64,000 nt of DNA, from positions 20,949,120-21,013,119 of the forward strand of contig CM057235.1 of assembly GCA_029891385.1 (NCBI GenBank), read 5' to 3'. Below, one piece after another: positions 22,171 through 53,348 of the stretch (within the stretch, counting starts at the first letter, position 1; every line of letters starts with the position of its first letter). Position numbers and translations under genes: made by a program. The stretch comes from Erythroxylum novogranatense (Eukaryota; Streptophyta; Magnoliopsida; Malpighiales; Erythroxylaceae). Under the pieces are notes generated by a model that was given only the letters and a program-made list of their open reading frames with translations, ran no database searches and was not told where the DNA came from.

Positions 22171-22171
22171 G

Positions 22172-22184
22172 TGGTATCAGAGCC
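22172..22184 (+). other. Primer-binding site of copia-1
   Basis: TGGTATCAGAGCC, one base after the LTR end: initiator-Met type and undamaged. Confidence 0.95.
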
Positions 22185-24243
22185 ACTTGTGTCAAGTATG
22201 AAGCTAAAACCCTAGCTATGTCGGACTTCCTATTTGAATTTGACGTTGATGCATGCATGCTGTCCAAATTTCGAATTAATATAGGGATATGTTTTTCGAA
22301 AATTTTCTGCCCAAAATTGTTCATAACATGTTATAGAATATGTCCGTGAAAGATGAGAATTTATCAATTTGATTTGATATAGTTTTGCTAATTTATTCCC
22401 TAAGGTTCTAGATGTTGTTTTGTGACACATTCTGTGAACAGGCATGTATATAAATTCGATAATAAATTCTAGAAAAATTTTTTTTCGTATTGGCCTTCAC
22501 CAACATGTCCCTAATATGTTTGTGAATGTCTATGTGGATGGAAAAGTGTTTTCAAGGTGATTTGCTATTTATTCACGAATTTATTCTATGCTGTTGGGAA
22601 TAGCTGTGTTGATGAACACAGATTTTGAATCGGTTTTGTTGCTTAGGTTGACTGAGTTTTTTATGGCTATAAATTCTGGAAAAATTCATGAGGCATTTTT
22701 TGAACATTTAGTAACCTGTGTAATTTTCTCAGAATTTATTGAAATTTTTTCAATGATTATTTCGAGCAATGTGTAGTACTTGGCAGTTTTGTGAACATTG
22801 CTGGGACTGTTTTGCTTGGCATAATTGAATGTGTATTTTTCAGTTCCAATGCCTTGGACCATTTTTAATGTGATTGAAAATGAGTTATATTGATGTAGTA
22901 TGCTTGCCAAACTGAATTGCTTGAATTTGGTTTTCCAAGAATTTTCGGATGCCGAATAGGTCACATTAGCGTCTCGTTAGTGTATTTCATTATCTTGTTT
23001 GTTTTGGCCGTCATAATTTTTTGTGACTTGTGCCGAAGTAATTTGATAACGTATGGACTAGCTAGAGATGCTTAGGGTGATAATTTGGTGTTTCCTAAAT
23101 TGTTTGGATATTTATGAGTAATGACTCATTTTCAAGCTTTTCTTGTATGGTTTGATCAGATATGGCAATCATGTAACAATGAAGTGTTCATTGGTACATC
23201 AAATTAACAGATATTACCTTAGGTATGTTGGTATTGTGAATTGGGACTACGGATTGAGAAATTAGCCGATTAGATAGCAATTTAACTTGGATAAGTCGAC
23301 TTACACAATGTACAAGTCGACTTGTCTGCAGCTCGTAGACGATAAGTCGACTTGCACAATGGTACAAGTCGACTTGTTAGTACGCATTACTGCAATCGAC
23401 TTACACATGCATAATTCGACTTACAGAGGCATAAGTCGACTTATACATACACAAGTCGACTTATAATATGCAAAGGTGGGATGATGGATGATTTTAGGTA
23501 TAAATTCAATGTGATTGATGAAGTACCCTAAGTCATGCCATATAGTCATGGTGACTATAATCCTACGGCTTGGAGAAGAAGAAGATGAGACCTGAAAATC
23601 CTTAAATCATATGAAAACTAATGCCTTCCATTAATATGGTAAGAACCAGTGTTCTTATAGGGTTGGGTTGTTGGGTAAACCCAAGCTCGCTCTATACGGA
23701 TATGTTCGAACCATGAAAATGTGATTTTTCGGATTAATGGGTTGGTTTTCACTAGAAGCGTTGGTTTGTTGAGTAAACTCAAGGTCAACGTGGACGAGGC
23801 GAATTGGGTAGCATACATCGATGTATGCGCATCAAAGAGTTGATAACCCAATGTAAGTGCACACATCAACAAGTTGATAGCACTGATCGATAGTTGTGTC
23901 TAAGATGTAATTGGTATATCTAATACCTCCCGAGACATAAGGTGGCTTGTTGGGTAAACCCAAGGTCATTCTTAATGTCAGTTATTGATGATGCAATTGG
24001 TATGTTCGATACCTACCGATTGACCTAAGTTGTGGCTTGTTGGATAAACCCAAGGTCATTCTTAGCAATATCGGATATCAACCCACTAGGACATTATCTC
24101 ATCTTGTTTCTTTGGATTCGTAATGAGGGTTATGGATTCTATGAAACTAGTGAGAGCTTTTTGCATATCATTCAAGTCCTTATGATTATGCATCTATTCC
24201 TATTCTAACATTCTTTCTCTCTTTCCGTTTAGGTTGGTTGAAG
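22185..24243 (+). other. Long non-coding leader of copia-1
   Basis: About 2.06 kb between primer site and gag, with no open frame matching a known domain. Copia-2 has an equally long homologous leader, so it belongs to the family. It contains the AAGTCGACTT array (23293-23462) and four repeats centred on TTGGGTaaACCCAA-type hairpins (23671, 23769, 23950, 24040). Copia leaders are usually much shorter. Confidence 0.8.
23293..23462. repeat. AAGTCGACTT palindrome array in copia-1 leader
   Basis: Six perfect copies (23293, 23314, 23344, 23366, 23433, 23453) and two one-base variants (near 23392 and 23413). Spacing is irregular, about 20-65 bases. Confidence 0.97.
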
Positions 24244-25090
24244 ATGTCTTCCAGTGTGAACTTACGCTCGCTAATGGATTCCAACAAGTTAACTGGACCG
24301 AATTTTCTTGATTGGCTAAGGAATCTGAGAATTGTTCTCAGATCTGAGGAACTGGGATACATCCTAGATGTTCCACTTCCAGATGCACTCTTGTCGATGC
24401 TTCGATGAGGATCGAAGACATATCGAAGCATCTAAAGGATGTTGACATGGCTACTTGCATTATGCTTGCCTCGATGTCACCAGAGTCTGCGTAAAAGACG
24501 AGTCCATGGATGCTCACACTATAGTATTTCATCTTAGGGAGTCGTTTGATGAGCAAGCTCGATGCGAAAGGTTCGAGACCTCGAGGCTTCTCTTCACCAC
24601 AAAGATGGCTCTAGGACATCTGGCATGCGCAAGATGCCCTCAAGATGAATGGCTATATTGAGAGATTGGCCGTCTTAGGTTTTGTAATGGATTATGAGTT
24701 AAGTATAGACTTAATTCGGTTGGATTATCCGAGAGTTATTCACGGTTAGTGTTAAACTATCGGATGAACCAAATATCCACAACAATACCGAGTTGATCAA
24801 TCTGCTCAAGACAAGTGAGCGAGCTATCAAGAATGATAGCAAGCAAGTGCTAATGGTGGTGCTTCTTCTTCCGGTTCAAAGAAGAAAAGAACCCAAAGAA
24901 GAAGAAGGCCAAGAAACCAAAGGAAGCGCCATCAAGAAGAAGACCAAAGAAGCTGCCCGAAAGGAACTTGCTTCCATTGTGGTAAAGATGGCCATTGGAG
25001 GCGCAATTGCAAAGTCTATTCGAGTCACTTTGAAGCGTAAGAAGGCATCGATGCCTCAACTACTTCGGTATGTATGTCATCGAGGTTAAT
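24244..25090 (+). pseudogene. copia-1 gag
   Basis: Copia-type gag (capsid and nucleocapsid). The ATG at 24244 opens MSSSVNLRSL, followed by NKLTGPNFLDWLRNLRIV, the usual copia gag start. The frame breaks near 24400, and DAHTIVFHLRE appears in another frame around 24510. Lys-rich sequence (24870-24960) leads to a complete CCHC zinc knuckle, CFHCGKDGHWRRNC, at 24969-25010. Several frame changes near 24403 and 24490 prevent translation. Gag is followed without a gap by protease. Confidence 0.88.
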
Positions 25091-26590
25091 CTGCTTCGAT
25101 CACAACATTTGGGTATTTCATACTAGTTGTGGCTCACATATGTAATGATATGCACGGGGCCTAAGGGACGATGATGTACTCATGAAGGAGAAGTAGACTG
25201 CGTGTTGGAAATGGAGCAAGAGTTCTTTGCATTAGCCGTAGGAACCTATGTTTTGTCTCTCCTCTTGGCTTGTACTCGAATTGGATGATTGTTATTTTGT
25301 ACCCGTTTTGACAAAGAACATATTGTCTGTTTCTTGTTTAAATAGAGCTGGTTTCCATTTGAATTTTAATAGCAATGGTTGTTCTATTAATTCTAATGGA
25401 ATGCTTTATGGTAATCTTGGTACATTATGCAATGGTATTTACATATTAGATATGTCTCATCCAATTATGAATGTCAATGACACCAAAAGACATAAAAGAG
25501 ATAATTTAAAGTCAACTTACTTATGGCATTGTCGAACGGCCATATAAATGAGACACGCATCGCTAAACTCCATAAGAGTGGCAGTTTAGGGTCATTTGAT
25601 TATGAATCATATGACACATGCGAATCTTGTTTATTAGGCAAGATGACTAAGTTACCCTTCAAGGGAAAGGGTGAACGAGCGACTGGAGTATTAGACCTAA
25701 TACATTCAGATGTATGCGGTCTGATGTCCATCCATGCTAGAAGTGGTTGTCGTTACTTCATTACCTTTATCGATGATTATTCTCGATATGGATACTTGTA
25801 TCTGATGAGATACAAATCTGAAGAGTTTGAAAAGTTCAAACAATTCAGAAATGAAGTAGAAAACCAGCTTGGTAAAAGTATCAAGGCATTACGATCCGAT
25901 CGTGGTGGAGAATACTTAGACCAACAGTTTATGGATTATCTCAGAGATAATGACATTTTATCTCAGTGGACTCCTCCTTACACACCACAACACAATGGTG
26001 TGGCTGAAAGGAAAAATCAAACCTTGTTGGACATGGTACGATCAATGATGGGTTTCGCACAGTTACCAAAATCGTTTTGGGGGTATGCGCTAGAGACAGC
26101 TGTTTACTTGTTAAACAGAGTTCCCTCTAAGACAGTTGATGTTACTCTATATGAGATGTGGACTAACAGAAAACCTTATCTTTCTCATTTGAAATTTTGG
26201 GGTTGTCCTGCTTACGTAAAGCGGATTCAGTCAGATAAGCTTGAAGCAAAGTCTGACAAGTGTTTGTTTGTAGGATATCCTAAAGAGACCATGGGATATC
26301 AATTCTACCTTACTGAGGAACAAAAGGTGTTTGTTTCAAAGCATGCTGTCTTCTTAGAGAAAGAGTTTCTTCTGCAAGAAGACAGTGGGAGCAAAGTCGA
26401 ACTTGAAGAAGTTCAAGATGCTCAAACAGACACAGATCAATTGCCTGAACCTGAGACTGTCACTCATTCAGATGAAGTAACAGTTCAACCTTCTACTACA
26501 CACGAAGATCGTAGGTCAAGTAGGATACGCACTGTTCCCGAGAGATATGGATTTCTCGTAAGTGAACAGAATGACGTATTGCTCATAGAA
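25091..26590 (+). pseudogene. copia-1 protease and integrase
   Basis: The protease region (25100-25300) is frameshifted; its active site reads FHTSCGSH where copia-2 keeps LDT, so the catalytic Asp is lost. VPVLTKNILSVSCLNRAG and the pre-integrase zinc region (WHCR...GH, CESCLLGK) follow. The integrase core lies in the long frame 25523-26764 (413 residues): LIHSDVCG, FITFIDDYSRYGYL, ALRSDRGGEYL and NGVAERKNQTLLD supply the DD35E residues, then WGYALETAVYLLNRVPSK and FWGCPAYVK. It is the longest open frame in the window, with an intact catalytic core. Confidence 0.93.
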
Positions 26591-28146
26591 GATGATGAGC
26601 CTGCTACTATGAAGAGGTTACGAAAAGTTCAGAGAAAAATGGCTTTGTGCCATGAAAGCGAAATGGATTCCATGTACCAAAACCAAGTATGGACTTTGGT
26701 TGATGCACCAAGGATAAAACCTATAGGGTGCAAATGGGTTTTAAGAAGAAACCGACGTGGATGATAATGTGATTACTTATAAAGCTAGGCTTGTGGCGAA
26801 AGGATTTCGCCAAAGACAAGGAGTTGACTATGACGAGACCTTGACCCGTAGCAAATGCTTAAATCCATTAGGATACTCCTAGCCATTGCCGCTCATTATG
26901 ATTATGAGATATGACAAATGGATGTGAAGACAACTTTCCTTAATGGAAATCTGGCCGAGGATGTGTACATGACACAACCAGAGGGCTTCACTTCCATCGA
27001 TGGCGAAAAGGTATGCAAGCTTCAGAAATCCATTTATGGATTGAAGCAAGCATCCAGGAGTTGGAACATCCGTTTTGATGAGTCAATCAAAGAGTTTGGT
27101 TTCTCACAAAATCCGGATGAACACTGTGTGTACAAGAAGGTTAATGGGACTGCAATCGTATTCCTTGTGCTATATGTGGATGACATATTATTACTAGGAA
27201 ACGATGTCTCGATGCTACAATCAGTCAAGATTTGGTTGTCCAAACAATTTGCGATGAAAGACCTTGGTGAAGCAACTTTTATCCTCGGGATAAAGATTTA
27301 TAGAGATAGATCGAAAAGGTTGCTTGGTCTTTCACAATCATCGTACATAGACAAGATGCTAAAGAGGTTTAGCATGGAGCAATCCAAGAGAGGGTTTCTT
27401 CCCATGTCTCATGGGATAACACTCGAAATCTATGTCCTAAGACACAAGATGAGAGGATCGCATGGATCGATCCCGTATCGTCTGCGATAGGATCGATCAT
27501 GTATGCTATGTTATGTATGAGGCCCGATGTATCGTATGCTCACGAGTGTCACGAGCGGATACCAATCGGATCTGGTGAGGGTCATCGGGTGGTCACAAGA
27601 ACATCCTCAAGTACTTGCGAAGGACTAAGGATGTTTTCTTGATATATGGAGATGGAAATCTCCAGTGAGCGGCATACGGATGCCGTTTTCAATCTGATAA
27701 GGATGATTCAAAATCCCAACAGTTATGTTTTCACATTGAACGACGGAGCGATCGGTTGGAAGAGTTCCAAACAAGAGACGATGGTGATTCAACGATCGAG
27801 GTAGCGGTACATTCTTTGCATCGAGGCAAGAAAGGAAGTCGTTTGGATCAAGAAGTTCATTTCTGAACTTGGTGTGGTTCCTAGCTGTGATGGGCCCATA
27901 CAGTTGTATTGTGACAACAATAGAGCTATTGCTCAGGCAAAGGAAACAAGGTCTCAACAACGATCTAAACACGTACTCCGCAGATATCATCTGATTCGAG
28001 AGATTATTGCCAGAGGTGATGTCGCGATCGAGAGAATTCCCACAGAGCAGAACATTGCTGATCCGTTGACAAAGCCATTGTCACAGAAGAGTTTTGATTC
28101 TCATGTACTCGCTTATGGTATTAGATACCAAGGCGATTGGCTTTAG
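26591..28146 (+). pseudogene. copia-1 reverse transcriptase and RNase H
   Basis: The RT lead-in at 26640-26760 ([25 protein letters not shown]) is frameshifted; the next block ends in YDYEI followed by TGA. The 26918-27490 frame (190 residues) opens with MDVKTTFLNG and contains KLQKSIYGLKQASRSW and the catalytic LYVDDILLLGND. RNase H is badly broken at 27500-27870, but its C-terminal end is clear at 27874-28146: YCDNNRAIAQAKE, SKHVLRRYHLIRE and NIADPLTKPLS. The stop before MDVKT is shared with copia-2. Confidence 0.93.
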
Positions 28147-28149
28147 GTC

Positions 28150-28161
28150 AAGTGGGAGATT
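28150..28161 (+). other. Polypurine tract of copia-1
   Basis: AAGTGGGAGATT, directly before TGTAGG; the same tract precedes the shorter LTR start in copia-2. Confidence 0.85.
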
Positions 28162-30093
28162 TGTAGGTGTAAGTCGACTTGTATTGAGATGTAAGTCGAC
28201 TTATACCAGTTCGGTACTAATAAGTCGACTTGTATACCCGTAAGTCGACTTATGCGTGTACTGATCGTGAGATTGTTAGAGTAGTGCCCTAAAGGCAATC
28301 CCTTTAGCGCTTTTTGTTCATAGTCATATACGCACTTTATGAATAAATAAAGAAAGGCATGTTTCATTTATTTGATGTTCTTTATGAATTGATATTGATC
28401 TTTAATCAAATTAATGAAGTCCATGATATATGACATAGCATGAAGGAAATTATGATGTGATCATAATCCCGAGATTCCTATCATGTGCAATTATGTCAAG
28501 ATATCTAAATTCTCCTAGTCATAGGATTAATGAGACCGAACATCATTAATCCCACGGACTAACATATGTTATACTCCTTGATTGGATCAGCGGTGGATCT
28601 CGAAACTGTAAATATGGGATATTTAGAGTTGACATGTGGATGCTTACTAGTGGTAGTAAGTACATTGGATGACCTGCCATGAGATCATCACATGGATGTC
28701 CTATTCTAATGTCAGTGATAATCTCATCATAGCAATGGTGCAAGTATCCTTAGACTTGAGGTACTCAAGGATATCTTGGATATTGATAATGTGCTTTGAC
28801 TCCATTCCTTGTTGCCTTTCAGAGGTTACCAATAGGGTGGTGCTTGGGTACAGCTTGAGATATTCGAAGGTAATTGAGTAGCCAATAAAGGATTCATCAC
28901 TTCTGTGATAGCAGAAGAGATACCCTAGCCTCTTGTCAGGATCATTACTTTAAGTCTCTGGCCAGAGCATAAATATGTCATGAAGAGTGTCTTCATGGAC
29001 ATATAAAGTAATGAGTCCTATGACAGGAACTGATATCACTTGGGCTAGACTTAGTCTAGTAAGAGTTGACACTTTGACCATACTCATAACCAAGTGGGGT
29101 ATAGGATGATGAAAGGACGAATTGCACAGTAATTGTCTATGGAAGGGTTCGTGATGAATTCATCAAACCAATTACTTTCCGGTCAATTGGGGGTCATGAT
29201 GTGTTGCTAGACGCCGCTCATGACATGCTCAGATTAAGTGTTAATCTAAGTGGCCAACATAACCGGGAACCTAAAGGGTCACACGCATAAGAGTGTTTCA
29301 GAGAATCCGTAAAATAATATTGGACAGAGTTCCAATTATGGAGAGCATTAGGATTAAATGGATCCCGATGAGATCGAGATATGTCCCGATGAGATCGCGA
29401 CATCAATATTGCTAAGAAAGGTTTAGGAGTGTTTGATCGGGGGCCAAGCCGCCGTAAGACCAACCCAGTTTGACTGGACCTCTTTAGCAATTATATATAT
29501 ATTAATTAATTAATTAAGATTAATTAATTATATATATATATATAGCATTTACGTGGATTGATGGGAGAAGATGGAAGAACCTTCCATTTCCATGCTTAGT
29601 CACCAAAGTCATTAAATGACTAAATGACAAAAAGAAAGATGGATGAAGTGATGCTCGTTGGTGAGGAAAGTGAGAATATACGATGTTCATTTTTCTTCAT
29701 CTATGAGAAAGGCTTATGGAGAAAGGAAAAAGGATTGATGATCGTGGGTTGATGAAAGAGTTTCAAAAACCTAAGGTTCATCATCTTTCATCCAAGGCTT
29801 CATCTCTTCTTCACCAAGCTCTTCTTTCGTCTCCATTGATTCAAGCTCTCCAAGGACAGAGGTAGGGTCTAGCAGCCTTTACTTTGTTCTAGCTATTCCC
29901 GGGTCAAAAGGGTTTGTCCCGGTTAGGTTTTCTGATCTCTGCGTGGATACCTTTAGAGATAGTCTCTATTGGCTATTCAGGTTTGAGTCTTCATACCGAC
30001 ACATAGATCCTGGCCTTCGGGAAGGTCCCGACGACAAAAATTTTTGTTTTCTGCACCTGGTACATGTGATGTACCTCCCGGGATTTTCCTACA
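28162..30093 (+). mobile_element. 3' LTR of copia-1
   Basis: 1,932 bp. It is colinear with the 5' LTR, including the palindrome block, and differs by scattered small changes and a shorter AT run at 29491-29543. Ends CCTACA at the GTCTA duplication. Confidence 0.93.
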
Positions 30094-30098
30094 GTCTA

Positions 30099-30260
30099 CA
30101 GCCCCTTGCTTCCTCAATTTATCATATCTTCTTTCTCACCTCTGGGGAATTCTCGGAGGCTTCTGAGCAAACTCAGGTACAGGAGACTCTAAATTGACTC
30201 CTACAGACTCCTTGTCAGCTGACTCACCAATTTGATCTCCTATGAAAGGTGACCTACAAT
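30099..30260 (-). pseudogene. Element C gag N-terminal part
   Basis: Reverse strand GDQIGESADKESVG, then PEFAQKPP, a stop, and RRYDKLRKQGAV, which joins in register across copia-1 to the capsid fragment ending at 20198. This confirms that copia-1 inserted into gag. Some 85 bases of untranslated leader separate it from the primer site. The start codon is not clear. Confidence 0.8.
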
Positions 30261-30343
30261 AAACAAAAGTTGTGATCACTATCGGAATATCTCACTAATT
30301 ATCATATCTCAACTCATATTTGTCCTTAAAAATGTCAAACCAT

Positions 30344-30355
30344 GCTCTGATACTA
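30344..30355 (-). other. Primer-binding site of element C
   Basis: Reverse strand TAGTATCAGAGC: the initiator-Met primer site with one change (TGG to TAG), four bases from the LTR edge. Confidence 0.85.
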
Positions 30356-32324
30356 AAAATGCAACATCCCACTACCACAGGGTACATACCCAAACATTCG
30401 GGTACATAACCTATGATAATGGTATGTTAAAGCAAAAACAAAACCAACTTACACATGGCATCAACTAACATCATTTAAAAGTCAGTAAGTTTTAAAACTA
30501 TTCATTGCATTCATTCACAAAGTTTACACTGTTTCGAATAGACAAATATTCACAAAAACCTCATACAGGTTCTAACAAAAACTGCAAAATAAAAGTTATA
30601 ACTCTCTGACGTCAGCTGACAGACCTCTGAGCCATAACATAGTCCAAAATGTTCTTCTAATCTAGAATAAATACTAAGTCTCTTGTCTCGTACCTAAAAA
30701 ATCACGTTGCAATTTTTTTATGAGTTTTGCGAACTCAATGAGTGAACCATCATTAATGATTTCACCGGATTCACATACACAAATCACATATTTCACAATT
30801 ATTCATACAGAACATGAATATTTCAAATACTCACACTGTCATGGCACATCATTTAATCAATGCAAATCAGATGATATATAAACACATACAGATGCATATG
30901 AAACTCCACATTCGTTATTAATATTATGGTCGTGTGCCTATCACATATATAAATACTAACCCATTGGGCTCAGCTAGAAACATATATCATAGAGCATAGA
31001 TCTACATGTAAGTGCTTGATATTGGTCACTCTGGTCACAACGCCTTTATCTAAGCATGCATTTTATAAAATGCATTAATTCATAATTTACCATATATCAC
31101 AATCATTTATAAAGCACAGTCAGAATTTCATAATCATCAGACCTAAGTTCGGAATTTAACTTTCGTTGAGAATTGACATTTCATACAAAATGATCAAACA
31201 AATCAGAGAACTTCCAATACAGTCCCAAATATTTACTCCTCAGACTTTATGTCCAAAATTCAGAAACAAATCGCAACAATTCAATAATTGGCAAATTAAA
31301 TCAAATCAATCCTAGGAAATTCATCTAGGTTGACTCACAGTACGCTCCAAGAAGCTATTGCCTGGATGGTCCGGTAATGTCCGACTGGCGTCCGATATGC
31401 TCTTTTATAACATACACAACACATTCACAAATATCACATTTTTGCACAAATGTACAAATATTCTTTTATGCACATCAATGCATAGAAAGTATGCACAATG
31501 CATGTTCAATGACAATTCTGAGTACATTATTGTAATTTTCATCATCAAATCGATTAGATATCAAAGCCCTCATTAATATCATTTGGTACTTATAATTTGG
31601 AACATAATAAAACAATGTGAAATCCATTACATAACTTAATTGGCCACTTCAGATTTTCTACCCACGTGATTTCAGGTCAACTTTGCATAATTAATCTGAT
31701 AGGGTATATGACAAAATTAGGCAAAAATCCCTTCTGGAAAGTTGTTCTACAATGTATTAAATTTCTAATGACTCTAAGATCATCAAATTTGATTCAGTAT
31801 TTTATGAGTTATGCTCACAAAACCATAGACTATGTACATTTTAACATTTAGCTAGTACATGATCATACCCTCTAATTGTACAACTCATGTCTTTCAGATC
31901 AGATATCCAAAAATTACAACCTTTATACCAATTTAAATATAAGAGAATAAGCTACAACTTTGGTGAAGATACCTCAGTCTAAATTGGGCTACATTAATAC
32001 AGTTTATTCAATAACCATAGGACATGATTTCTGTCCCTGGTAATGCTACAACATAAGCTATGATGCAGTTTTATGCCAAATTTGAAAGTCTTAGAGACAG
32101 AATTAAAATTCTACTTATTCACAAACGTTGTAGAAATAAGTCTCTAGTTTAATATGAATCAAAAATCAACTCATTCAGAAATCTTCAGCTCAAGTTATAA
32201 TCAGAATACCGAAACATATTCATGAACATTTCCAGTTCATAATATTCCAGCAGACTTTCACACTTTCATTCTATCAATCACTTTCAAACCTGTTGCGACC
32301 CAATCCGGTGACCGGATCCCAACC

Positions 32325-40826: not shown

Positions 40827-40869
40827 GAGTTTGCGAACTCAGTGAGAAACCATCATCGATGGTTCACTC
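40827..40869. repeat. Conserved LTR hairpin box (B1)
   Basis: GAGTTTGCGAACTC followed by AACCATCATCGATGGTT. The B2 copy at 48759-48800 is identical in these two cores. Confidence 0.75.
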
Positions 40870-41995: not shown

Positions 41996-42165
41996 TCTTC
42001 GTCGCGGCGTACAGAAGGTCGCTCGCCGATGCGTGAAGGACGTTCGCCGTGGCGTGAAACCATGCGCTCGCCACGGCGTCTCGCTGCGCTCGTCGCAGCG
42101 AACACTTAATTACTTGCCGCGACGAGGTTGCGCCAGACGTCGCGACGTGCGGGTCGCGCCTCCGT
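41996..42165. repeat. CGTCGCGACG-type palindrome array (B1)
   Basis: About nine variants of TCGTCGCGACGA / CGCCGTGGCG in a GC-rich island inside AT-rich LTR. Irregular spacing of about 15-25 bases. Confidence 0.8.
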
Positions 42166-43071
42166 CTTCTCCGATCGCTTTTTCCTCTTCTCTCTCTAAA
42201 AACCAGCATTAAACACTCCCATCTACCCATTCAAGCACATTAAATACCATAAATGCATCAAACAACCATTAATAACAACAATAAAGCCATTAACTTACCA
42301 AATCAAGCCTCAAATCCACAAATCTCTCAAGTCACCGTAAACCCTAACATCCTTCAATATCAACGATTAACCACTCTCAAAGCTTCTCAACCTTCATCAA
42401 TCACAATAAACAAGTTAGCTTTGCACAATGAGGAGAAAACCACAAGGAAAAATCAAAGAACCTCACCGATGGGAGGAATCGATGAACACCGTGGGAGGAG
42501 GAAGAGAAGAAACGGTAATGCCTTAGGAAAATCCCCAAATTTCAAACCTAAGTATTTATAGACATAGGTCTCCAAATCAGTTCAAATTTCAGTCTCTAAA
42601 TTTCAATGGCTCAACACTTTCAATTTCCTAACAGTATCACTCTAATTTTTCCATCGCCATTGGACAATTCTTTCAGTACTATACAGTCAATCGGTCTGTC
42701 ACTCGAAAATTTCCGGTCCGGGCATTTTCTCCCGAATTTCCAGAAAATTTCCTATAAGCCACTATCAATTGCCAATCACTCTTAAACTTTTCTAACTCAG
42801 TCATTCGAGCCCAATTACTCCTAATTTCTCAATCAATCGTAATCCAGTTCACAATCTAATCAATTTGTACTCACAATTAAAATACCGGAAAACCATGAAT
42901 GCATGTACCTATGAATAAATGCATATGCAATAAACCTGTTCCTCTATAATTAGAGGTCAGTAACATGCTCAATCAGTGAACGCAATGAAACCTATCAGTC
43001 TGAGCCAATATTACCATAATGCCCTTGCTAACAATAACGGGATGTTACATATAGTATATGTATATATGTGT

Positions 43072-43114
43072 CACGTGGCAATTTATAATAGCGGCAATTG
43101 ATGGGAGACACGTG
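43072..43114 (+). promoter_or_regulatory. Two CACGTG (G-box) motifs in U3 of E
   Basis: CACGTG at 43072-43077 and 43109-43114, 37 bases apart; the 3' LTR has the same pair at 62436 and 62473. CACGTG is the core bound by plant bZIP and bHLH factors. A role in element transcription is an inference. Confidence 0.5.
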
Positions 43115-43617
43115 TATATGATGCAAAGAACCCACGTATTTTAAGGTTGCAATGAAAATATCTTAGGACGAGTTACTGAACTTTGTTCATCGGAAGCATG
43201 CATGTTCTACTTGGTTTTGTTCATCACCGATCATGGAGTTGCTCTCGGTGGTCGCTCTCACGAGTTGCTCATATTCTTTGGAATCGGTGAACCAAGTAAG
43301 TGTTGTTTTCATGCGATTCAGTGACTATGGTCTGTTTCCCACGATACATGCATGGATATTTGAGTGTTCATAGAAATGAATGAGATAAGTCTGATGATGC
43401 TCGGGTGATTGATACAGAAGTTGTGCATGCATTTTGTTAGAAGTGAAGTTGCATGTGTGAGGATCAGATTCTGATGTTTTAAGTGAATCTTGAGTTTGAT
43501 CTTATGTAAATATTTCAAACTAGATTAGGAATTAATTAGAGTGAAGTTTTAGAGATTATTTTGGGTATAGAAGTGAAAAATCTGGAAAAAGAAATCGGGG
43601 AAGATGAGTTGCAGAAC

Positions 43618-43850
43618 CAGACGTCGCGACGTGTTTTTATTTATTCGTCGCGACGTGTTTTTGTTTATTCGCCGCGACGTCAATCTTCTTCCTCGCCGCG
43701 ACGTTCATTTTCTTCCTTGTCGCGACGTAGGTGATTTCCCCCCTTGAATTCGTCGCGGCGAACGTTGTAAAAATCCCGGGAAAATCAATTTTTTGGGTTG
43801 TTCGTCGCGACCTCATATTTTCCCCTCGTCGCGACGAGCACCCATCCTTT
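43618..43850. repeat. CGTCGCGACG palindrome array (E 5' LTR)
   Basis: Eight copies of TCGTCGCGACGN or close variants. The 3' LTR has seven at 62985-63180; the difference is one repeat unit, and the 3' copy shows several C to T or G to A changes at CpG. Confidence 0.85.
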
Positions 43851-45047
43851 GACTGCTCGAACACGCTTTCGTATTTTGACCATAACTTTCTCTATACTGA
43901 TCCAATTTAGGTTATTCTTGATTACCTGTAAACTAGAGACATAGGCCTACAATGTTTATGAAGAAATGGAGTTTTAATTCTGTCTCTAATAGTTTCAAAG
44001 TTTGGTTGGAAGGTGAGGTATAAATTTTGCTGGAACTTATGAACCATCTGGAATATTTTGAGGATATCTCTTGGTATAATGATCCAAATTAAATGATTTT
44101 GGTTTCCTTAGAAAGATAAGAAATGAGAGAACAACTTTACAGAAGGAAGTTTTGTCTAATTTGGTCATTTACCTGATCTAATTTAGTATGGAAAGTTGAC
44201 CCGAATATGTTCTATAGGAAAAATCTGAAGTGGTCAATGAAGCTATGAAATTATTTGACATTGTTTGGTCCAATTCAATTGTAAGAATACATGGTATTAA
44301 TGAGGGCTTTGATTCCTAAATGATTTTTGATAAGGATCACATTATTGCACCCCAAAATTGTCATTGAACATGCATTGTGCATACATTCTATACATTGATA
44401 TTTTTATGAAAGAACATTTGTGCAATTGTGCAAAGTGTGATATTTGTGAATGTGTTTTGCCTATTTTAGAGGAGCATATCGGACGCCAATCAGACATTTC
44501 CGGACCATCCAGGCAATAGCTTATTGGAGCGTATTGTGAGTCAACCGAGATGATTTCCTAGGATTGATTTCATTTGATTTGTTTAAGCTTCCAATATTAT
44601 TATATTGCTTGCGATTTGATTATAAATTCTGGACTTTAATTGTCCGAGGAGATCAATATTCGGGAATGCATTAGAAGTGCTTTGATTGTGACTTTGTTTG
44701 CTATGGAATTCTGAACGTTATTATGAATGTTATGTGAATCCTAAACGAAAGTTGAATGCCGGACTTAGGTCTGATGATTATGAGTTTGGTTTGAGCATCC
44801 TATGTGATTGCCATATATGCCATATTCAGTTTTGATGCATTGGAAGTGTTCCAAGTTGATGTGAAACTCCTATGATATGTGAATTCTCAACGTATGTTGA
44901 ATGCCGGACTTAGGTTCGATGATCATGAGTTTCTGATTGAATATCATATGTGATTGTCTGATATGGCATAATCAGTATTTGATGCATTTCATAAATGCAT
45001 GTTCAGATAAAGGCGTTGTGACTTGAGTAGCCAGTATGAAGCGCTTC

Positions 45048-45136
45048 CACGTAGAGCTTTGCTCTGTGATATATTTGTTTGCACGTAGAGCTTTGCTCCG
45101 TGATATATGTGTTTGCACGTAGAGTTATGCTCCGTG
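45048..45136. repeat. Three tandem hairpins with CACG...CGTG arms (E LTR)
   Basis: 34-bp period; units start at 45048, 45082 and 45116. Each has outer arms CACG and CGTG (or TGTG) and inner arms GAGC and GCTC around TTT. The third unit has lost one inner pair (GAGTTATGCTC). Confidence 0.8.
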
Positions 45137-45380
45137 ATTCTGTTCTGATTGAGCCCTATGGGCCAGTATTTCTATAAGTATATGATAGGCACTCAGTCAC
45201 AACAATAAGAACGAATGTGAGTCTCATGCATGTAGCATTCATATAAGATTGAAATTCTTGAATGATTTGCAAAGTTGTAATGAGTGACCATATGTTATGC
45301 CTTGTTATATGAGTGTCTGAAAAATAGTTATGTTCTTAATGAATATCTGTTATATATGTGATGTTGTTTGTAATCCGGTG

Positions 45381-45420
45381 AAATCATCAATGATGGTTCA
45401 CTCATTGAGTTGCAAAACTC
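45381..45420. repeat. Conserved LTR hairpin box (E)
   Basis: AATCATCAATGATGGTT dyad and GAGTTGCAAAACTC dyad, in forward orientation; about 475 bases before the LTR end, as in F, C and B. Confidence 0.7.
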
Positions 45421-45897
45421 ATCAAAAATTGCAATGTGGCTTTTCAGGTTCTGAGGAATTATTTCAGCTAGGCTAAATGGAGTATAGCTACTGAGGTCTG
45501 TTATGGACTAGGGGTCGGGATTAGTTTGCACCTGCACATGTCTTCATTGATTTTTATTTTTGAATTATGTTCCATAAGAATTGTACAAAGTGTATATATA
45601 CGATTTGGTAAATGAAATGACTTCATGGTTTCAAGTGTTTTGTATCTGAAATGGGCCCAACTTTAAAGTTGAATACTAATGTTTGTAAAGATTGTAGCTT
45701 AGAAATGGAAATGTTTTCAAATGAAATGGGCCCAATTTGATTAGTATTTTCTGTTTGCATGTTCCTTATTTTAAAGAAACAAAAGTTTTGTAATAAATTT
45801 TAACTGAATGATCGTTTTAACATGCCACCCTCGCGGGGTACGTACTCGGATATCACCATGGATGTTAGGTACGTGTCTTGTGAGAGTGCTTACATTT

Positions 45898-45910
45898 TGG
45901 TATCAGAGCC
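45898..45910 (+). other. Primer-binding site of element E
   Basis: TGGTATCAGAGCC, three bases after the LTR end; undamaged initiator-Met type. Confidence 0.92.
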
Positions 45911-47639
45911 CAGAGTTAGTATCTTACATGGGCAATTTTCGACATATGTGTTAAGTTACGTGCATTTCAATCATGTCATAGCAGGCAGTAGCAACTGATC
46001 CCTGGTATAAGTTGCATTTATATGAGTCACATACATGAGTATTTGTTAAGTGTTTGAATTGATGGAATTAGTTGGAAGAATGATGATCTGTCTGACTATG
46101 AGAAAATGAAAGTTTGTGGATATTTAGAAAGAGAAAATAGTATATGGTTGGATATGACGAATAATGATGTAATATATTTGTATTGGTGGATGTATGACGG
46201 CATACGATATTGAGATTGTACTGTGGGCAGATATTCCTGAATGTGCTATAAATGTGAATACATTGTCTTGAATTGATTAAGGAAAGTAATGATATAAGGA
46301 TGAATGACGAGATTTAAAGTGTACAAGCCAAGTTGAAAGAAGAAAAAAATTTCTATGACTTTGAGAGGTCAAAGTTGGACTTGAAATGATTGTCAAATAA
46401 ATGTGATATGAGTTATGTTTCACTATAAGAATATGTTGGTGGAATTGTGATCAGAATTTTAGGATGATTATGTATCGATAAGTCTGAATTGATGGTGAAA
46501 ATACGTATGTATGATGATATATTGGTAATTGGATGATGAGATACAGATAGTGAGAATTGTAAAAGTTGTCATGGTTTGGTTAAATTGTTATTTTGTGAGC
46601 ACATATTAAGAATGGGATTACTATGACAAGTGTGAGAATCGAGCACATAAGAATTATATGTGTGGAGAGGATATAAGAAGCAATCTATGGGATATGAATA
46701 AATATTTAGTCATAGTTCCCATAATTTAACGTCTATGATGAATTAGAGTAATGAATGAAAGTGCTTATGGTTGTCGATCGAGGATAGATTGAGGGTGTTA
46801 AAGATGATATTGTGTGTGATGAAATCGAGGAAAAGAAGAAGGGAAAGATTGTGGCATAGTTCCCACGACCGAGGTTAGGTGAAAAAAAAAGGAGAAGAGA
46901 TAAGTGTTTTCCTAAATCAAATGAGATTAAGATATTCTGAGCATAAGTTGTTAATTAGTGAATTGTTTTAAATACATCTCTAGATGAGATGTGATGTTTA
47001 TGAATAGTTGAAATGACCTTTTGGGGTACTAAGAATGTTTGATAAGCAATGATGGGAATAGTTGATTGATAAGGATTAGATGAACAATATAGTTGATCGT
47101 AGTAAGAAATCTTCTTTGCCAGAAGAAGTTCACCGAATATAGTTAAGTTGACCTAATGGTTTGATGAAAACGGAATAGATTAAAAGAAGAATATTGGAGT
47201 TCTATGCCCGATGAAGACTTAAGCATAAGATGTAAAATATGCTACAGAGAGAGTGTATGTATTTTGTTTGAGGCAAAGTATCCAACTATGAGATTAGATT
47301 CTGAAATTTGAGGTGGCGCTATTGCTAATATGAGGAGAACTTAGACCCACATTACGTTATATGAAAATATGCTCTGGGAATACAAATTGATTTGATGAGT
47401 ATGTTGCCAATACAAGAAGTTAAATTTGTGAATGTATTGAAACAAGAGGAGAAACTAGTTAGAATGGTTCAACATTATGCCAATGTGAAATCAGAGGAAA
47501 TAATAGGAATGGAAGGATCATTCGAGAAAATAAGTCAATTGAGAAATTAACAAAATATGAGATAATTGTACGTCATTGGGGAATTAAGTGCGTAAGGAAT
47601 TATGAGAACTAATGATGGGTACATAGAGTTTTGGCAATA
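45911..47639 (+). pseudogene. Decayed gag-protease-RT N-terminal region of element E
   Basis: Position between primer site and RT implies gag and protease, but stops are so dense that I cannot place a firm domain. No open frame of 60 codons or more occurs. AT content is high, with many TGA/TAA/TAG codons that look like C to T and G to A decay. Treated as dead coding sequence on context alone. Confidence 0.5.
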
Positions 47640-47760
47640 TTTGTTAGAGTTAACTTCACCCCTGAAAGTGTCATAGTATTGAAGAATAAAGTGATCCAAT
47701 TTTGTTTGGATCAGTTAGTGGCTGTGATTATAGATGATGTTTTTGAATGTATTTGAAGAG
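47640..47760 (+). pseudogene. Element E reverse transcriptase remnant
   Basis: One frame reads VNFTPESVI...KNKVIQFCLDQLVAVIIDDVF, aligned by eye to the Ty3 RT segment LTNAPA...MNRVF...VVFIDDIL that is intact in element D at about 12110-12210. The catalytic DD pair survives. A stop follows within a few codons. Confidence 0.65.
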
Positions 47761-47874
47761 TTGAAAGGAATATTGTGCCTACTTAAGAAAATCTGTGGTT
47801 TTGAATGTATATGAAATTCTGTTTATGCATTAAAGAGAAAGCTATGCATAGCATATTTTGTTATTTGATACATA

Positions 47875-48060
47875 TTATATAATGCATGTTCTGATAAAGA
47901 TGTTGTGATCAGAGTAGCTAGTCTAAAAGAGCTTTAAGCTCAGAATTCTGCACGTAGAGCTTTGCTCCGTGATTCCTGTTTCTGACTGAGCCTAATGGCC
48001 AGTTCATGTATCGGTATTTGAAAGGCACTCGATCACAACAAATAGTATCAAATTGGAGAT
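47875..48060 (+). repeat. LTR-derived fragment inside element E
   Basis: Sequence between the RT and RNase H remnants matches the E LTR around 45000-45230: GTTCTGATAAAG..., one CACG/GAGC hairpin unit near 47950, GACTGAGCC...GGCCAGT, and GGCACTC...TCACAACAA. LTR sequence is not expected inside pol. Confidence 0.7.
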
Positions 48061-48189
48061 TATGTAGTATTCAATGATGTTTCACATCATAAATTAAGAT
48101 GCACTTGTTGTAGCATACCAAACTGATCTTGTATGCATAGAGGCAATTAAATTCTCATAAGTTGAATGTTTGACAAATGATTTGAAATT

Positions 48190-48345
48190 TGTTGAAATAG
48201 CCACTGCTTTTTAAGCTTGGAGACGCTATATGTATAGCGAAACATTTTGGATTTTTTTTTATTCAGATAAATAAAGTTTGAGGTACTTATTGAGTTTGAA
48301 ATAATTTTTGTGCGAGACTGCGATAATAGACAGAAGTATTGAAGG
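48190..48345 (+). pseudogene. Element E RNase H remnant
   Basis: Reads VEIATAF, stop, AWRRYMYSETFWIF, then SLRYLLSLK, aligning to the [15 protein letters not shown]...[16 protein letters not shown] region of element D. Interrupted by solo LTR B2 at 48351. The catalytic residues are mostly lost. Confidence 0.7.
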
Positions 48346-49434
48346 ACTATGTGTAGCGCCCCCTCACCGTAGGGTACACATCGGGACGCCAGGAGGTCGC
48401 TCCGACACGTATCCCACGATAAAGGTGCACCACCAGAACATTCCCACTAATAATCCACATGGCATCGCAATAATTAAACCATAATATAACAGAAATCAGT
48501 AACTTTTAAAATCCAAAATAATCATCTGGTACAATCATCCAGAAGCAGAATAGACAAGTCTATCAGTCCCCTAAACAAAACCAAAAAGGAAACTGATACA
48601 AGCATCTATCCTAAGTCATCCTTAAAAGTCCAACCCAGCTGACCGACCTGTGTGCCATCGCTTCTCTTGCCAGCACGCTCGCACGGCAGGAAAAGACTAT
48701 CTCCGGAGCTAGGGGTCTACACTAACGATCCTGAAAAAAATTAGATGCAATTTTGGGTGAGTTTGCGAACTCAGTGAGAAACCATCATCGATGGTTCACT
48801 CAAATCATGCATTACGCAAATTGTGTACAGCACGGCACAGTAAGATACAATTAGTATATAACAATTTGCAGTAGCCTATAGCAGTTTGCAGTATCATATT
48901 ACGATTCACAGTATTATGCAACAGTTTATAGTAGCATGTAACAATTTGCAATCTCTCATGTCATCACACAATTCAGTAAGTGTCGCAATTCAAACAGTCA
49001 TGTGTATACAATGCATATGAGACTCTTTTCCAGTTATTCAGTGTTGTGCCCAAGTGCTCGATCGAGATTCGATGGGGACGCGTGATTTTCTCCCCTGGGC
49101 TCGAGGCCCGCGATCGATGTTCGAGCTCGAGGCTCTTTTCAATGATAATAGCACTTGGGTCACATATCCATTATCTGATCATGCATTTATGCATGCAATG
49201 CAGTGTTCAGTAATTCAGTGTATGGCTATAAAAGCCCAGTATTGCATTTCTTAGTGTCATGCAGTAGTCCAATCCAATACAGTAGAAGCATACCATTCGA
49301 TCATGTATATTTCAGTAATCATGCAATTTCACATTGGCAAGTAATTCACATTGAGCATTTATACAATCAGTAATTTGAGAAACCAACTAGGTTACTCACC
49401 TGTAACTTTCGAGCTATTGCCTGGAAGTTCCAGC

Positions 49435-51285
49435 TGTTAGAGTAGTGCCCTAAAGGCAATCCCCTTTAGCGCATTTTGTTCATAGTCATGTACAGACTTT
49501 ATGAATAAATAAAGCAAGGCATATTTCATTTATTTGATGTTCATTTTATTATGAATTGATAGTGATCTTTAATCAAATTAATGAAGTCCCTGATACATGA
49601 CATAGCATGAAGGAAATTATGATGTGATCATACTATTGAGATTCCTATCATGTGCAATTATGTCAGTATCTAAATTATCCCTAGTCATAGGATTAATGAG
49701 ACTGGACATCGTTAATCCGGATAGACTAGCACATGTCAAACTCCTTGATTGGATCAGCGGTGGATCTCGAAAACTGTAAATATTGAGATATTTAGATTTG
49801 ACATGTGGATGCTTACTAGTGGTAGTAAGTACATTGGATGACCTGCTATGGGATCATCACATGGATGTCCTATACAAATGTCGGTGATAATCTCATCATA
49901 GCAATGGTGCAAGTATCCTTAGACTTGAGGTACTCGAGGATATCTTAAATCTTGATTACGTACTTTGACTCCATTCCTTGTTGCCTTTCGTGAGGTCGCC
50001 ATAGGGTGGTGATTGGAGTGCAGCTTGAGGTATTCGAAGGTAATTGAGTAGCCAATAGAGGATTCACCACTTCATTATAGCGAAGAGATACCCGTGCCTC
50101 TTATCGGGATCATTACTTTGAAGTCTCTGGCGCCGAAAGCATACATATGTCATGAAGATGGTCTTCATGGACATATAAAGTAATGAGTCTAGGGCGAGAA
50201 CCGATTACACTTGGACTAGATTTGATCGATCGGTCTAGTAAGAGTTGACACATTGCCCATACTCAAACCAAGTGGGGTATAGCATGGTGAAAGGACAAAT
50301 TGCATGGTAATTTTTTTAATGGAAGGGTTAGTGATATGGTTTCATTAGTCAAACCAATTACTTTCCGTAAATTGGGGTCATGATGTGTTGCTAGATACCG
50401 CTCATGACTTGCTCGATTAAGTGTTAATCTAAGTGGCCAACATAACAAGGAACCTAATGGGTCACACGATAAGAGTGACTCGGAGAATCAGTAAAATAGT
50501 TTGAGACGAGATCCGATATCCGGAGAGCAATAGGATTAAATAGATCCCGATGAGATTGGGATATGTCCCGATGAGATCGCGACATCGACATTCTTTGAAA
50601 ACCGTTTCGATGATTTTTTGCGGCGGGGCCCATGAGCGGTAGGATCGACCCCAGTTTGACTGGACCACTTCAGCAATTATATATATTAATTAATTAAGTA
50701 AATAAATAAATAATTATATATATATAAAGTGATTTTCGGTGGAGCCATATGAATGGAGAAGTAAGTTAAGTTTGAAAAGTCAAAAGTAATGATTATTTAG
50801 CAAATTAAGACATTTTTTATGTCTTATACGTGGATGCCCATTCCACCAAAGCTTATATATGTATTTTAAGTGTTAAAATACATAGAAGTAGGAATGGAAG
50901 AAGGCTTGCACGGTTTTGGTAGAGGGAAGAACCGAAAGCTTAAGAGTTAAGCTTTGAAAATTTGATTTTCCATCTTCTTCACTTCATCCTCTCCATTGGC
51001 TTCTACTTCTCCAAGGCTCCACTAAGATCATTTCACTTGCTCTCCAAGGCTAAGGTAAGAGCTAGCACTCTTCTCTTTAGTCTAGCTATTCCCGGGTCAA
51101 AAGAGTTTGTCCCGGTTAGGTTTTCCGACCTTTGCGTGGATACCGTTAGAGACGGTCTCCTTTGGTCGTTATGGTTTGATTGTTTATACATACACATAGA
51201 TCCTGGCTTTCGGGAATGTCCCGGGACTCAAAATTTTAAATTCCGCACTGTGGGCATGTGATTCCTACCCCGGGATTTTCCTACA
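49435..51285 (+). mobile_element. 5' LTR of copia-2
   Basis: 1,851 bp. It lacks the AAGTCGACTT block found at the start of the copia-1 LTR. It shares the TAGTAAG and TATGTC...GACATA hairpins and the TATATA stretch (about 50674-50727). It differs from its 3' partner by many CAG/CTG-to-CG-type changes. Confidence 0.93.
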
Positions 51286-51286
51286 G

Positions 51287-51299
51287 TGGTATCAGAGCC
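51287..51299 (+). other. Primer-binding site of copia-2
   Basis: TGGTATCAGAGCC, one base after the LTR end. Confidence 0.95.
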
Positions 51300-53348
51300 A
51301 CTTGTGTTGTATAAACAGTCGAAATGATAACTAGGTCGGAGTTCCTTTGTGAAGTGAGCTGCTAATGCATGTTATTTGTGTGAATTTCGAATCAGTATAG
51401 AGATGCATGTTTTCGAAATTTCTTGCCCAGATATGTTCACAAGGTGTTGTAGTTTATGTCTGTGGAAGCTTGAAATTTATTAATTTGATTAGCTATGGTT
51501 TTGCTAATTTTATTCCCTAAGTTTCAGATGCTGTCTTGTTGAACATTTCTGAAACAGGCATGCTTGTAAATTCGAGAATAAATTCTAGAAAAAAAAATTT
51601 TCGGCTTGGTTTTCACCGACATGTCCCTAAGATGTTTGTGAATGTCTCTGTGGATGGAAAAATGTTTTCAAGGTGATTTACCATTTATTTCCGAATTTCT
51701 TGTGTGCTGATGGGAATGTTTGTGTTGTAGAACACAGATTCTGGTTCGCTAGATTGCTGAGGTTCAATGAGTTTTGTGGAAATAAATCCTGGAAAATTCA
51801 TGGAGCATTTTGGGAACATGTTTTAACCTCTGTAATTTTCTCAGTATTTATTGAAAGTGTTTCAATGGTCATTTTGAGCAAAATGTTGAGCTTAGCAGTT
51901 TTGAGAAACTTGCTGGGGCTGTTTTGTTTGGAATGATTGATCGTGTTATTTTCTGTTCCAATGCCATGAATCATTTTATAGTGATTAAAATGTGTTATAT
52001 TGATGTGGTATGCATGCCAAGTTGAGATTCTTGAATTTAGGTTTCCAATAATTTTTGGATATCGAATAGGTCACTTTAGCGTCTCGTTAGCTTATTCCGT
52101 TATCTTGGTTATTTTGGCCGTCGCAATTTTTTGTGACAAGTGCCGGAGTAATCTTGATAACGTGTAGTCTACCTAGAGATACTTAGCTTGATAATTTGGT
52201 GTCCTTGAATTATGTGGAAATCTAGTGATTAATGGTGGATTAATCGGTTTCAAGGTTTTCATATATAGTTAGACTATATGGCATGCATGAGTTGATGAAA
52301 ATGTTTCATTAGCACATTAATATAAAGGTTTATATACTTGTTATATTGGTGTTGTGAATTGGAAATGCCTGGATTAAGAATTAGCCGATTAGATAGCAAT
52401 TCCATATGGACAATGAATAAGTCGACTTATATGTTCATAAGTCGACTTGTTTGATCTGCATCAGACTAATAAGTCGACTTGCACAATGGTACAAGTCGAC
52501 TTGTTCATGCACAGTTGCACAAGTCGACTTACACATGCATAAGTCGACTTATACAGAGCCATAAGTCGACTTATACATATGCAAGTCGACTTATAACATG
52601 CAAAGATGGTATGATGGGTGATTTTCGGTATAAATTCAATGTGATTGATGCAATGCCTTAAATCAGACCATATAGTCATGGTGACTATGATCCTTGGATG
52701 AGATTAATTAGATGAGACCTAAAATCCCTCACTTAAAATATGAAAACTAACACCTTCCATTAATATGGTAAGAACCAGAGTTCTTATAGGGTTGGGTTGT
52801 TGAGCTAACCTCAAGCTCACTCTATACGAATATGTTCAAACCATGAAAATATGATTTTTAGATTAATGCGTCGGTTTTCCTAGAAGCGTTGATTTGTTGA
52901 GCTAACCTCAAGGTCAACGTGGACAGAGGCGAAGTTGGGTAGTGTACATCAGATGTACACGCATCAAGTGTTGATAACCCAATGTATGTGCATACATCAA
53001 CCGCTGATAAAGACTGGCGATAGTTGTGTCTAAGATGTAATTGGTATGTCTGATACCTCCCGAGACATAAGATGGCTTGTTGAGCTAACCTCAAGGTCAT
53101 TCTTAATGTCGGTCATCGATGATGAAATTGGTATGACTGATACCTACCGATTGACCTAAGGTGACTTGTTGACCTCAAGGTCATTCTTAGCAATGTCGGA
53201 TATCGACCCACTAGGTTAATGTGCCATTTTGTTTCATGGATTCTGTTGAAACTAGTGGGAGCCATATGTATGTCATTTAAGTCCTTATGAGCATACATTT
53301 AATCCTATTCTAACTTTCTTTCTCTCTCTATGTTTAGGTTGATTGAAG
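51300..53348 (+). other. Long non-coding leader of copia-2
   Basis: About 2.05 kb, homologous throughout to the copia-1 leader. It holds the palindrome array (52419-52592) and four hairpin repeats (52800, 52897, 53080 and a truncated one at 53169). No protein domain is seen. Confidence 0.8.
52419..52592. repeat. AAGTCGACTT palindrome array in copia-2 leader
   Basis: Eight perfect copies, starting at 52419, 52439, 52471, 52493, 52521, 52541, 52563 and 52583. Spacing is about 20-32 bases. Confidence 0.97.

What the first reader, a model, noticed from the sequence alone, without database searches (positions are those of the whole stretch)
22185..53348. Arrays of the palindrome AAGTCGACTT in a copia leader
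Copia-1 has six perfect and two near copies in 170 bases (23293-23462), copia-2 has eight perfect copies (52419-52592), always between primer site and gag. The 10-mer is fully palindromic and is conserved while spacers vary, which suggests selection for the motif. Many short identical sites in non-coding DNA resemble the motif clusters bound by VANC anti-silencing proteins of Arabidopsis VANDAL transposons; a dimeric host or element protein could bind here. The binding idea is inference.
Basis: partly seen in the sequence, partly recalled or inferred. Interest (0 to 1): 0.78.

Follow-up and report, generated by a model that had tools for sequence, protein, structure and literature searches.

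The report
Palindrome arrays in plant copia elements
Two decayed plant copia retrotransposons carry clusters of one short palindromic DNA word in their long leader, and one of them also at the start of its terminal repeats; the word has stayed nearly unchanged while its surroundings drifted, so it is probably a protein-binding control site, which remains to be tested.

Summary
All 22 exact sites fit YAAGTCGACTTR. Between the two leaders the motif differs at 3 of 80 positions, the spacers at 13-27 of 83-89 depending on the alignment (P 4e-6 to 0.016), the rest of the leader at 377 of 1869. All 24 motif CpGs are intact although CpGs in the LTR pairs decay by about 22-25% per copy.
Best reading (about 0.5): binding sites for a sequence-specific, probably dimeric host protein, acting as internal enhancer or boundary, like the Su(Hw) array in the Drosophila gypsy leader or the palindromic repeated motifs of Sireviruses. 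Main rival (about 0.25): structure of the genomic RNA; but both leader arrays fold better on the minus strand and hide the palindromes in stems. VANC-like anti-silencing is possible by analogy only. New variant of a known kind. Only two elements could be compared; no binding or methylation data, and the whole-genome search did not complete.

The parts
20204..22170 (+). copia-1 5' LTR (TGTAGG...CCTACA), target-site duplication GTCTA at 20199-20203 and 30094-30098
   Evidence: ends read by hand (scripts used 22172)
20204..20318 (+). U3 extension present in copia-1 LTRs and absent from copia-2 LTRs; ends in a PPT-like remnant before TGTTAGAG
20213..20295 (.). U3 array of copia-1 5' LTR: 4 exact AAGTCGACTT, spacing 22, 29, 22
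22172..22184 (+). primer binding site TGGTATCAGAGCC, one base after the 5' LTR; tRNA-Met type by likeness to the printed Sirevirus PBS
23293..23462 (.). copia-1 leader array: 6 exact and 2 near sites, spacing 21, 30, 22, 27, 20, 20, 20
23541..23559 (+). conserved leader hairpin TATAGTCA-TGG-TGACTATA
23811..23828 (+). leader hairpin with two compensatory pair changes against copia-2 (52942-52960)
   Evidence: pairs counted by hand
24244..24246 (+). gag start codon of copia-1, 11 bases after a conserved splice-acceptor-like site
28162..30093 (+). copia-1 3' LTR
   Evidence: end read by hand (scripts used 30095)
28162..28273 (+). U3 extension in the copia-1 3' LTR
28171..28251 (.). U3 array of copia-1 3' LTR: 4 exact sites, spacing 22, 29, 20
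49435..51285 (+). copia-2 5' LTR (TGTTAGAG...CCTACA), target-site duplication CCAGC; no array
52419..52592 (.). copia-2 leader array: 8 exact sites, spacing 20, 32, 22, 28, 20, 22, 20
52521..52592 (-). sites 5-8 of copia-2: near-perfect inverted repeat with 33-base arms and 6-base loop, best paired on the minus strand
53349..53351 (+). gag start codon of copia-2
57250..59095 (+). copia-2 3' LTR; no array

Best explanation
The arrays are clusters of binding sites for a sequence-specific DNA-binding protein of the host that recognises the symmetric word YAAGTCGACTTR, probably as a dimer. In the leader they act from inside the transcribed element as an enhancer or boundary for the LTR promoter. 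The copia-1 subfamily also took such an array into the start of U3, so that the promoter of its 5' LTR has arrays on both sides. Shown: the arrays, their places, the excess conservation of the motif, the intact CpGs. Inferred: that a protein binds, that it is a dimer, that it acts on transcription. A candidate only: the central hexamer GTCGAC is the PLACE entry CRTDREHVCBF2, core CRT/DRE motif (as quoted in a table of PMC9138379, passages), which would suggest AP2-type cold/drought factors.
For: Motif changes 3/80 against spacers 27/89 and rest of leader 377/1869; the spacer contrast holds in three other alignments. The same word appears in leader and U3 with spacers of little likeness (LTR against inverted lead1 P 0.008, against lead2 P 0.30). 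Flanks: pyrimidine before 23 of 24 sites and purine after 24 of 24, a symmetric but degenerate extension as a dimer site would have. The copia-1 insertion with the array in U3 made a proper target-site duplication, so the array-bearing LTR could still transpose. Motif CpGs intact in 24 of 24 sites where LTR-pair CpG decay predicts 5.7 losses (P 0.0014; 3.5 expected and P 0.023 if only TG/CA products are counted), which could reflect low methylation or a bound protein. 8 of 8 aligned motif CpGs kept in both leaders against 20 of 51 elsewhere in the leader. Precedents: gypsy leader with 12 Su(Hw) sites in 340 bp (PMC2374998, passages); palindromic repeated motifs in 13 Sireviruses (PMC2829016, section 9).
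Against: No binding, methylation or expression data. Only two elements could be compared. Spacers 3 and 5 are as conserved as the motif, and with free gaps the spacers (16/86) change no faster than the leader. One gap column falls in the motif in the full alignment. Spacing is not under visible constraint: gap columns 5 of 94 in spacers, 75 of 1944 in the rest of the leader; spacings of 27-29 do not fit helical phasing with 20-22. The CpG test assumes that LTR CpGs are a fair standard and is a small sample; with the counts, extension included, P is about 0.004 (by hand). The leader also bears a structured-RNA signal, and the GTCGAC match is only six bases.
Confidence: 0.5

Rival explanations
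1. RNA function: in the genomic RNA the arrays fold into long hairpins, or pair between two RNAs, and serve dimerisation, packaging or control of splicing and translation.
For: The lowest folding z-scores of each leader lie over the arrays (120-base windows mostly over them: -3.2 to -11.2; two-sequence windows -5.9 to -9.2). With motifs kept and spacers shuffled, the real leader spacers still pair better: copia-2 plus P 0.010, minus 0 of 500; copia-1 plus 0.036, minus 0.004. Some hairpins elsewhere in the leader show compensatory changes, and many, not all, two-sequence windows have low z on the plus strand. Ty1 has palindromes PAL1/PAL2 in RNA dimerisation (PMC8396678, passages); BARE2 keeps dimerisation and packaging signals (PMC3735527, passages).
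Against: In both leaders the array folds better on the minus strand (-77.3 vs -64.0; -94.8 vs -78.2); in the LTR arrays the plus strand is better. In the two windows over the array, double changes on the plus strand are 0 and 1 against 0.8 and 0.7 in shuffles. Motif bases are 87% and 99% paired in the predicted leaders, mostly with other motifs (0.79 and 0.99), so no loop is exposed for kissing; homodimer gain is only -9.3 and -4.7 kcal/mol. The LTR arrays gain nothing from their spacers (P 0.18-0.51). RNA pairing alone does not explain why one particular 12-mer is kept.
Confidence: 0.25
2. Neutral: palindromic words multiplied by slippage or inverted duplication during reverse transcription, and look alike without function.
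For: Spacers within leader arrays are more alike than shuffled ones in both orientations; parts of the arrays are larger inverted repeats.
Against: Eight sites align one to one between the leaders, so the array is older than the split of the two elements (inference); since then the motif changed at 3.7% where coding DNA changed at 14% and LTRs at 20%.
Confidence: 0.1
3. The arrays are hairpin sources of small RNAs, as reported for palindrome clusters of maize Sireviruses, kept as a by-product of another function or as a target of the host.
For: Strong folding on both strands. PMC10760457 (passages) reports that an excess of small RNAs mapped to structured Sirevirus regions with clusters of palindromic motifs and that cis-regulatory regions of elements are often arrays of sometimes palindromic repeats.
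Against: Gives the element no reason to keep the motif; intact CpGs do not suggest heavy methylation at the arrays. No small-RNA data here.
Confidence: 0.08
4. VANC-like anti-silencing: a protein of this or another element binds the arrays and removes DNA methylation.
For: Clustered short motifs with diverging repeats in non-coding DNA are the targets of VANC proteins (PMC5735166, passages; PMC10398659, passages). Motif CpGs resist decay.
Against: No shared extra ORF of 90 aa or more in the two elements. The printed VANC motifs are different. The same CpG result fits any bound host factor.
Confidence: 0.07

Closest known systems
Sirevirus palindromic repeated motifs (RM), Bousios et al. 2010, PMC2829016 (abstract, sections 9 and 19, passages)
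   Same: Copia elements with 8-32 copies of one palindrome in non-coding DNA with diverged flanks; the Vitis RM CGGTCGACCG shares the central GTCGAC.
   [quoted passage not shown] Here in the leader, and in one element at the very start of U3, of elements that miss three Sirevirus features.
Drosophila gypsy insulator, Su(Hw) site array, PMC2374998 (passages)
   Same: An array of one binding word in the 5' untranslated region of an LTR retrotransposon, embedded in AT-rich DNA.
   Different: Gypsy sites share a degenerate 12-base consensus, not a full palindrome, and are bound by a known zinc-finger protein; here the binder is unknown and the host is a plant.
VANC target repeats of Arabidopsis VANDAL transposons, PMC5735166 (passages)
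   Same: Short motif repeated in non-coding DNA of a transposon, repeats diverge.
   Different: VANDALs encode the binder and are Mutator-like DNA transposons (the latter recalled); motifs YAGTATTAY and AGTTGTCC/AGTTGTAC are not palindromes.
Ty1 PAL1/PAL2 dimerisation palindromes, PMC8396678 (passages)
   Same: Palindromes in the 5' region of an LTR element RNA.
   Different: Two named palindromes within the first 580 nucleotides; here eight copies about 1.1 kb after the LTR, predicted buried in stems.
Drosophila copia leader (ULR), PMC2443393 (passages)
   Different: No palindrome array was seen in the passages read; a repeat-based enhancer there is recalled, from no call.

Membership tests
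Sirevirus | Multiple PPT copies upstream of the 3' LTR | tested here: not met
   Only 15 bases lie between the pol stop (28146) and the copia-1 3' LTR (28162), holding one PPT (counted by hand).
Sirevirus | 5' LTR/PBS junction CA/ATTGG-TATCAGAGC | tested here: not met
   CA/GTGG-TATCAGAGC in both elements against the printed motif.
[quoted passage not shown]
   Core is AAGTC-GACTT; array begins 9 bases into the copia-1 LTR and is absent from copia-2 LTRs. Tnd-1 is a published exception for the core.
Sirevirus | At least 8 near-identical palindromes per element | tested here: met
   16 sites in copia-1 (14 exact), both LTRs counted; 8 in copia-2. Likeness, not membership.
Sirevirus | Position in a copia polyprotein tree | not tested
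   No named reference set was at hand; Pfam domains were found in 4 of 8 ORF pieces.
VANC/VANDAL anti-silencing system | Element encodes a VANC protein | tested here: not met
   No extra ORF of 90 aa or more shared by the two decayed elements; VANC in trans was not excluded.
VANC/VANDAL anti-silencing system | Motif clusters in non-coding repeats | tested here: met
VANC/VANDAL anti-silencing system | Loss of DNA methylation at the motif | not testable with these tools
   Only the indirect CpG-decay test.
gypsy-type leader insulator | Array of protein sites in the 5' leader | tested here: inconclusive
   Array and place met; binding not testable.
Retroviral/Ty1 dimerisation signal | Palindrome exposed in a loop or single strand (recalled criterion) | tested here: not met
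   Motif 87% and 99% paired in predicted leaders; prediction only.

The most novel reading that the evidence does not exclude
The arrays recruit a trans-acting factor that keeps the element's own CpGs unmethylated, so that a copia retrotransposon without any anti-silencing gene borrows protection from a host or foreign protein; the unchanged CpGs in 24 of 24 sites of two decaying copies would be its fossil trace, and the CpG palindrome arrays of the second repeat family in the window a parallel case.
Probability: 0.1. Interest if true: 0.78.

Novelty: new variant of a known kind. Interest (0 to 1): 0.5.

Why it matters
Palindrome arrays in copia elements were described as a Sirevirus feature of LTRs and env flanks (PMC2829016). 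Finding one in the leader of elements that fail three of four Sirevirus features tested, and seeing one at the start of U3 in one of two related elements, suggests that such arrays are an exchangeable control module. It gives a 12-base word that can be tested at once for binding, methylation and enhancer or boundary activity.

Tried and rejected
Helical phasing as proof of DNA binding: spacings 20-22 and 30-32 would fit two and three turns, 27-29 do not; dropped (by hand). Constraint on spacing: not seen. LTR array as a plain copy of the leader array: weak, only against inverted copia-1 (P 0.008; copia-2 0.30). Known RNA family: copia-1 region only (20100-30200), 6 matches with E up to 1, none at gathering score. 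Other carriers of spaced motifs: one viral contig (L001), where a stretch read shows a short direct repeat that I did not annotate, and six bacterial contigs (L002-L007); L002 was read in part and shows a 21-base tandem repeat unlike the array, L003-L007 were not read. No relative of the RT or IN/RT pieces confirmed in viral contigs. Plasmid tblastn gave three records, two of them like this pol; the motif was counted in L008 only and is absent there (L009 was not read by the script). Literature: the exact 10-mer occurs in 80 papers; of the 20 listed none has a title on plant retrotransposons, the other 60 were not seen. Searches listed no paper whose title describes leader palindrome arrays in plant copia outside Sireviruses; this covers open-licence papers only. 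Element lineage: passages of PMC6317226 gave no usable test; not assigned.

On re-reading the sequence I moved three LTR ends by two bases (22170, 30093, 51285). Counts made by hand from printed sequence: LTR ends, extension lengths, the 15-base linker, compensatory pairs, helical fit.
Full report
What is there. The window (36.8% GC) holds two Ty1/copia elements that share their layout. Copia-1 has LTRs at 20204-22170 and 28162-30093, target-site duplication GTCTA and a tRNA-Met type primer site; copia-2 has LTRs at 49435-51285 and 57250-59095 and duplication CCAGC. Of 8 ORF pieces given to Pfam, 3 match the copia reverse transcriptase, 1 the integrase and 4 nothing. Of the best 120 of 7953 RT relatives, 8 rows name an organism: 7 plants and one Bifidobacterium record. 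Both elements are decayed. LTR pairs differ by 2.5% and 4.7%; between the elements the LTRs differ by 20% (copia-1 without its extension), coding DNA by 14% and the leader outside the arrays by 20%. Each leader is about 2.06-2.07 kb, with 70 and 78 upstream ATGs.

The arrays. AAGTCGACTT occurs 22 times exactly, all in four arrays; with one mismatch allowed there are 25 matches against 1.95 expected. The leader arrays begin 1.12-1.13 kb after the LTR and end about 0.76-0.78 kb before gag. They lie in a stretch of 115 and 112 bp that copia-2 lacks. In copia-2 the PPT runs straight into TGTTAGAG; in copia-1 a PPT, a new LTR start TGTAGG, the array and a PPT-like remnant precede the same TGTTAGAG. 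The copia-2 state therefore looks ancestral (inference), and since copia-1 inserted with a proper duplication, the extended LTR was functional.

Motif against spacers. In the full leader alignment the motif differs at 3/80 positions plus one gap column, spacers at 27/89, the rest of the leader at 377/1869; Fisher motif vs spacer 3.8e-6, motif vs rest 6.6e-5, spacer vs rest 0.03. Eight random 10-column blocks outside the array are rarely so well kept (6 or more identical: 0.0002). Anchoring the sites and aligning each spacer freely gives 16/86, 24/89 and 13/83 for spacers, P 2.9e-3, 3.3e-5 and 0.016. So the size of the contrast depends on the alignment, its direction does not. Spacers 3 and 5 are identical in both elements. 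Within a leader array, spacers are about half alike, more than shuffled ones, in direct and in inverted comparison; in the LTR array this is not clear. The arrays thus grew partly by old duplications, and the motif outlived the spacers. The word extends to YAAGTCGACTTR (Y 23/24, R 24/24; the one exception is a near copy).

CpG clue. Each site is centred on TCGA. In the LTR pairs, apart from the U3 extension, 23 CpGs are shared and 15 are in one copy only for copia-1, 33 and 19 for copia-2, a per-copy loss of 0.25 and 0.22. For 24 motif CpGs this predicts 5.7 losses; none is seen (P 0.0014; counting only TG/CA products, 3.5 expected and P 0.023). The copies look dead, so selection on the element should not act after insertion; low methylation or occupancy would explain it, but so could chance or local context. 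I treat this as a lead.

Structure. The arrays fold strongly on both strands, as any palindrome array must. With the motifs held and spacers shuffled, the real leader spacers still add pairing (P 0.036 and 0.010 on plus; 0.004 and 0/500 on minus), those of the LTR arrays do not (0.18-0.51). Sites 5-8 of copia-2 form a near-perfect inverted repeat with 33-base arms on the minus strand. The spacer between sites 2 and 3 folds into a small hairpin in both leaders (P 0.013 and 0.014 against shuffles) and, less clearly, in U3 (0.044 and 0.055). In the leader as a whole 22 of 61 hairpin entries of copia-1 recur at the same place in copia-2, against 0-9 at 12 shifted registers; entries include nested variants (about ten distinct places, two of them in the array), and sequence likeness alone raises this number, so the compensatory changes, such as two in the hairpin at 23811, are the better evidence. 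Two-sequence folding is low in many windows and near zero in some. The leader thus probably has an RNA role; but the leader arrays fold better on the strand that is not the genomic RNA, show no excess of double changes, and bury the motif in stems, unlike an exposed dimerisation loop.

Mechanism. I weigh a protein-binding DNA array at 0.5, RNA structure at 0.25, neutral growth 0.1, small-RNA hairpins 0.08, VANC-like anti-silencing 0.07. The main points for DNA are that one exact word is kept in two element regions with little-related spacers, that its flanks follow a symmetric but degenerate rule, and that U3 is a normal place for such sites (general knowledge). Both roles may coexist.

Comparison. 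Sirevirus repeated motifs (PMC2829016; abstract, sections 9 and 19 and passages) are the nearest in kind; three Sirevirus features were tested and not met, one was met, so this is like them, not one of them. The gypsy insulator (PMC2374998, passages) is the nearest in place. VANC repeats (PMC5735166, PMC10398659, passages) are the nearest for the anti-silencing idea. No genome-wide count could be made because the genome search did not complete.

Noticed in passing
window 42000-43836 and 59647-63176: A second clustered CpG palindrome, CGTCGCGACG (10 exact, 20 within one mismatch; 0.12 expected), many copies 24 bp apart, in a different repeat that copia-2 appears to interrupt. It is the only other word family with four or more copies in 200 bp in the scan.
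   Followed up: partly
window 24232 and 53337: Strong pyrimidine tract plus TAG just before gag in both elements, with 70 and 78 upstream ATGs in the leaders: gag may be translated from a spliced RNA. Conserved donor-like GT sites lie both before (22557) and after (23639) the array, so the array may be intronic or exonic.
   Followed up: partly
window 23671-24053 and 52800-53094: Repeated small hairpins, four units in copia-1 and three in copia-2; in two of the units TTGGG/CCCAA stands against TTGAG/CTCAA, a compensatory change, seen by eye.
   Followed up: no
L008 and L009 (NZ_CP115302.1, NZ_CP115454.1): Two small linear 'plasmids' of Streptomyces camelliae and Kitasatospora cathayae encode a copia pol about 52% identical to this one, probably plant contamination (inference).
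   Followed up: partly
L002:6016-6193: A Tannerella MAG contig carries AAGTCGACTT in a 21-base tandem repeat, unlike the array.
   Followed up: partly
window 25509-25518: AAGTCAACTT, one base from the motif, in the copia-1 pol region; probably chance.
   Followed up: no
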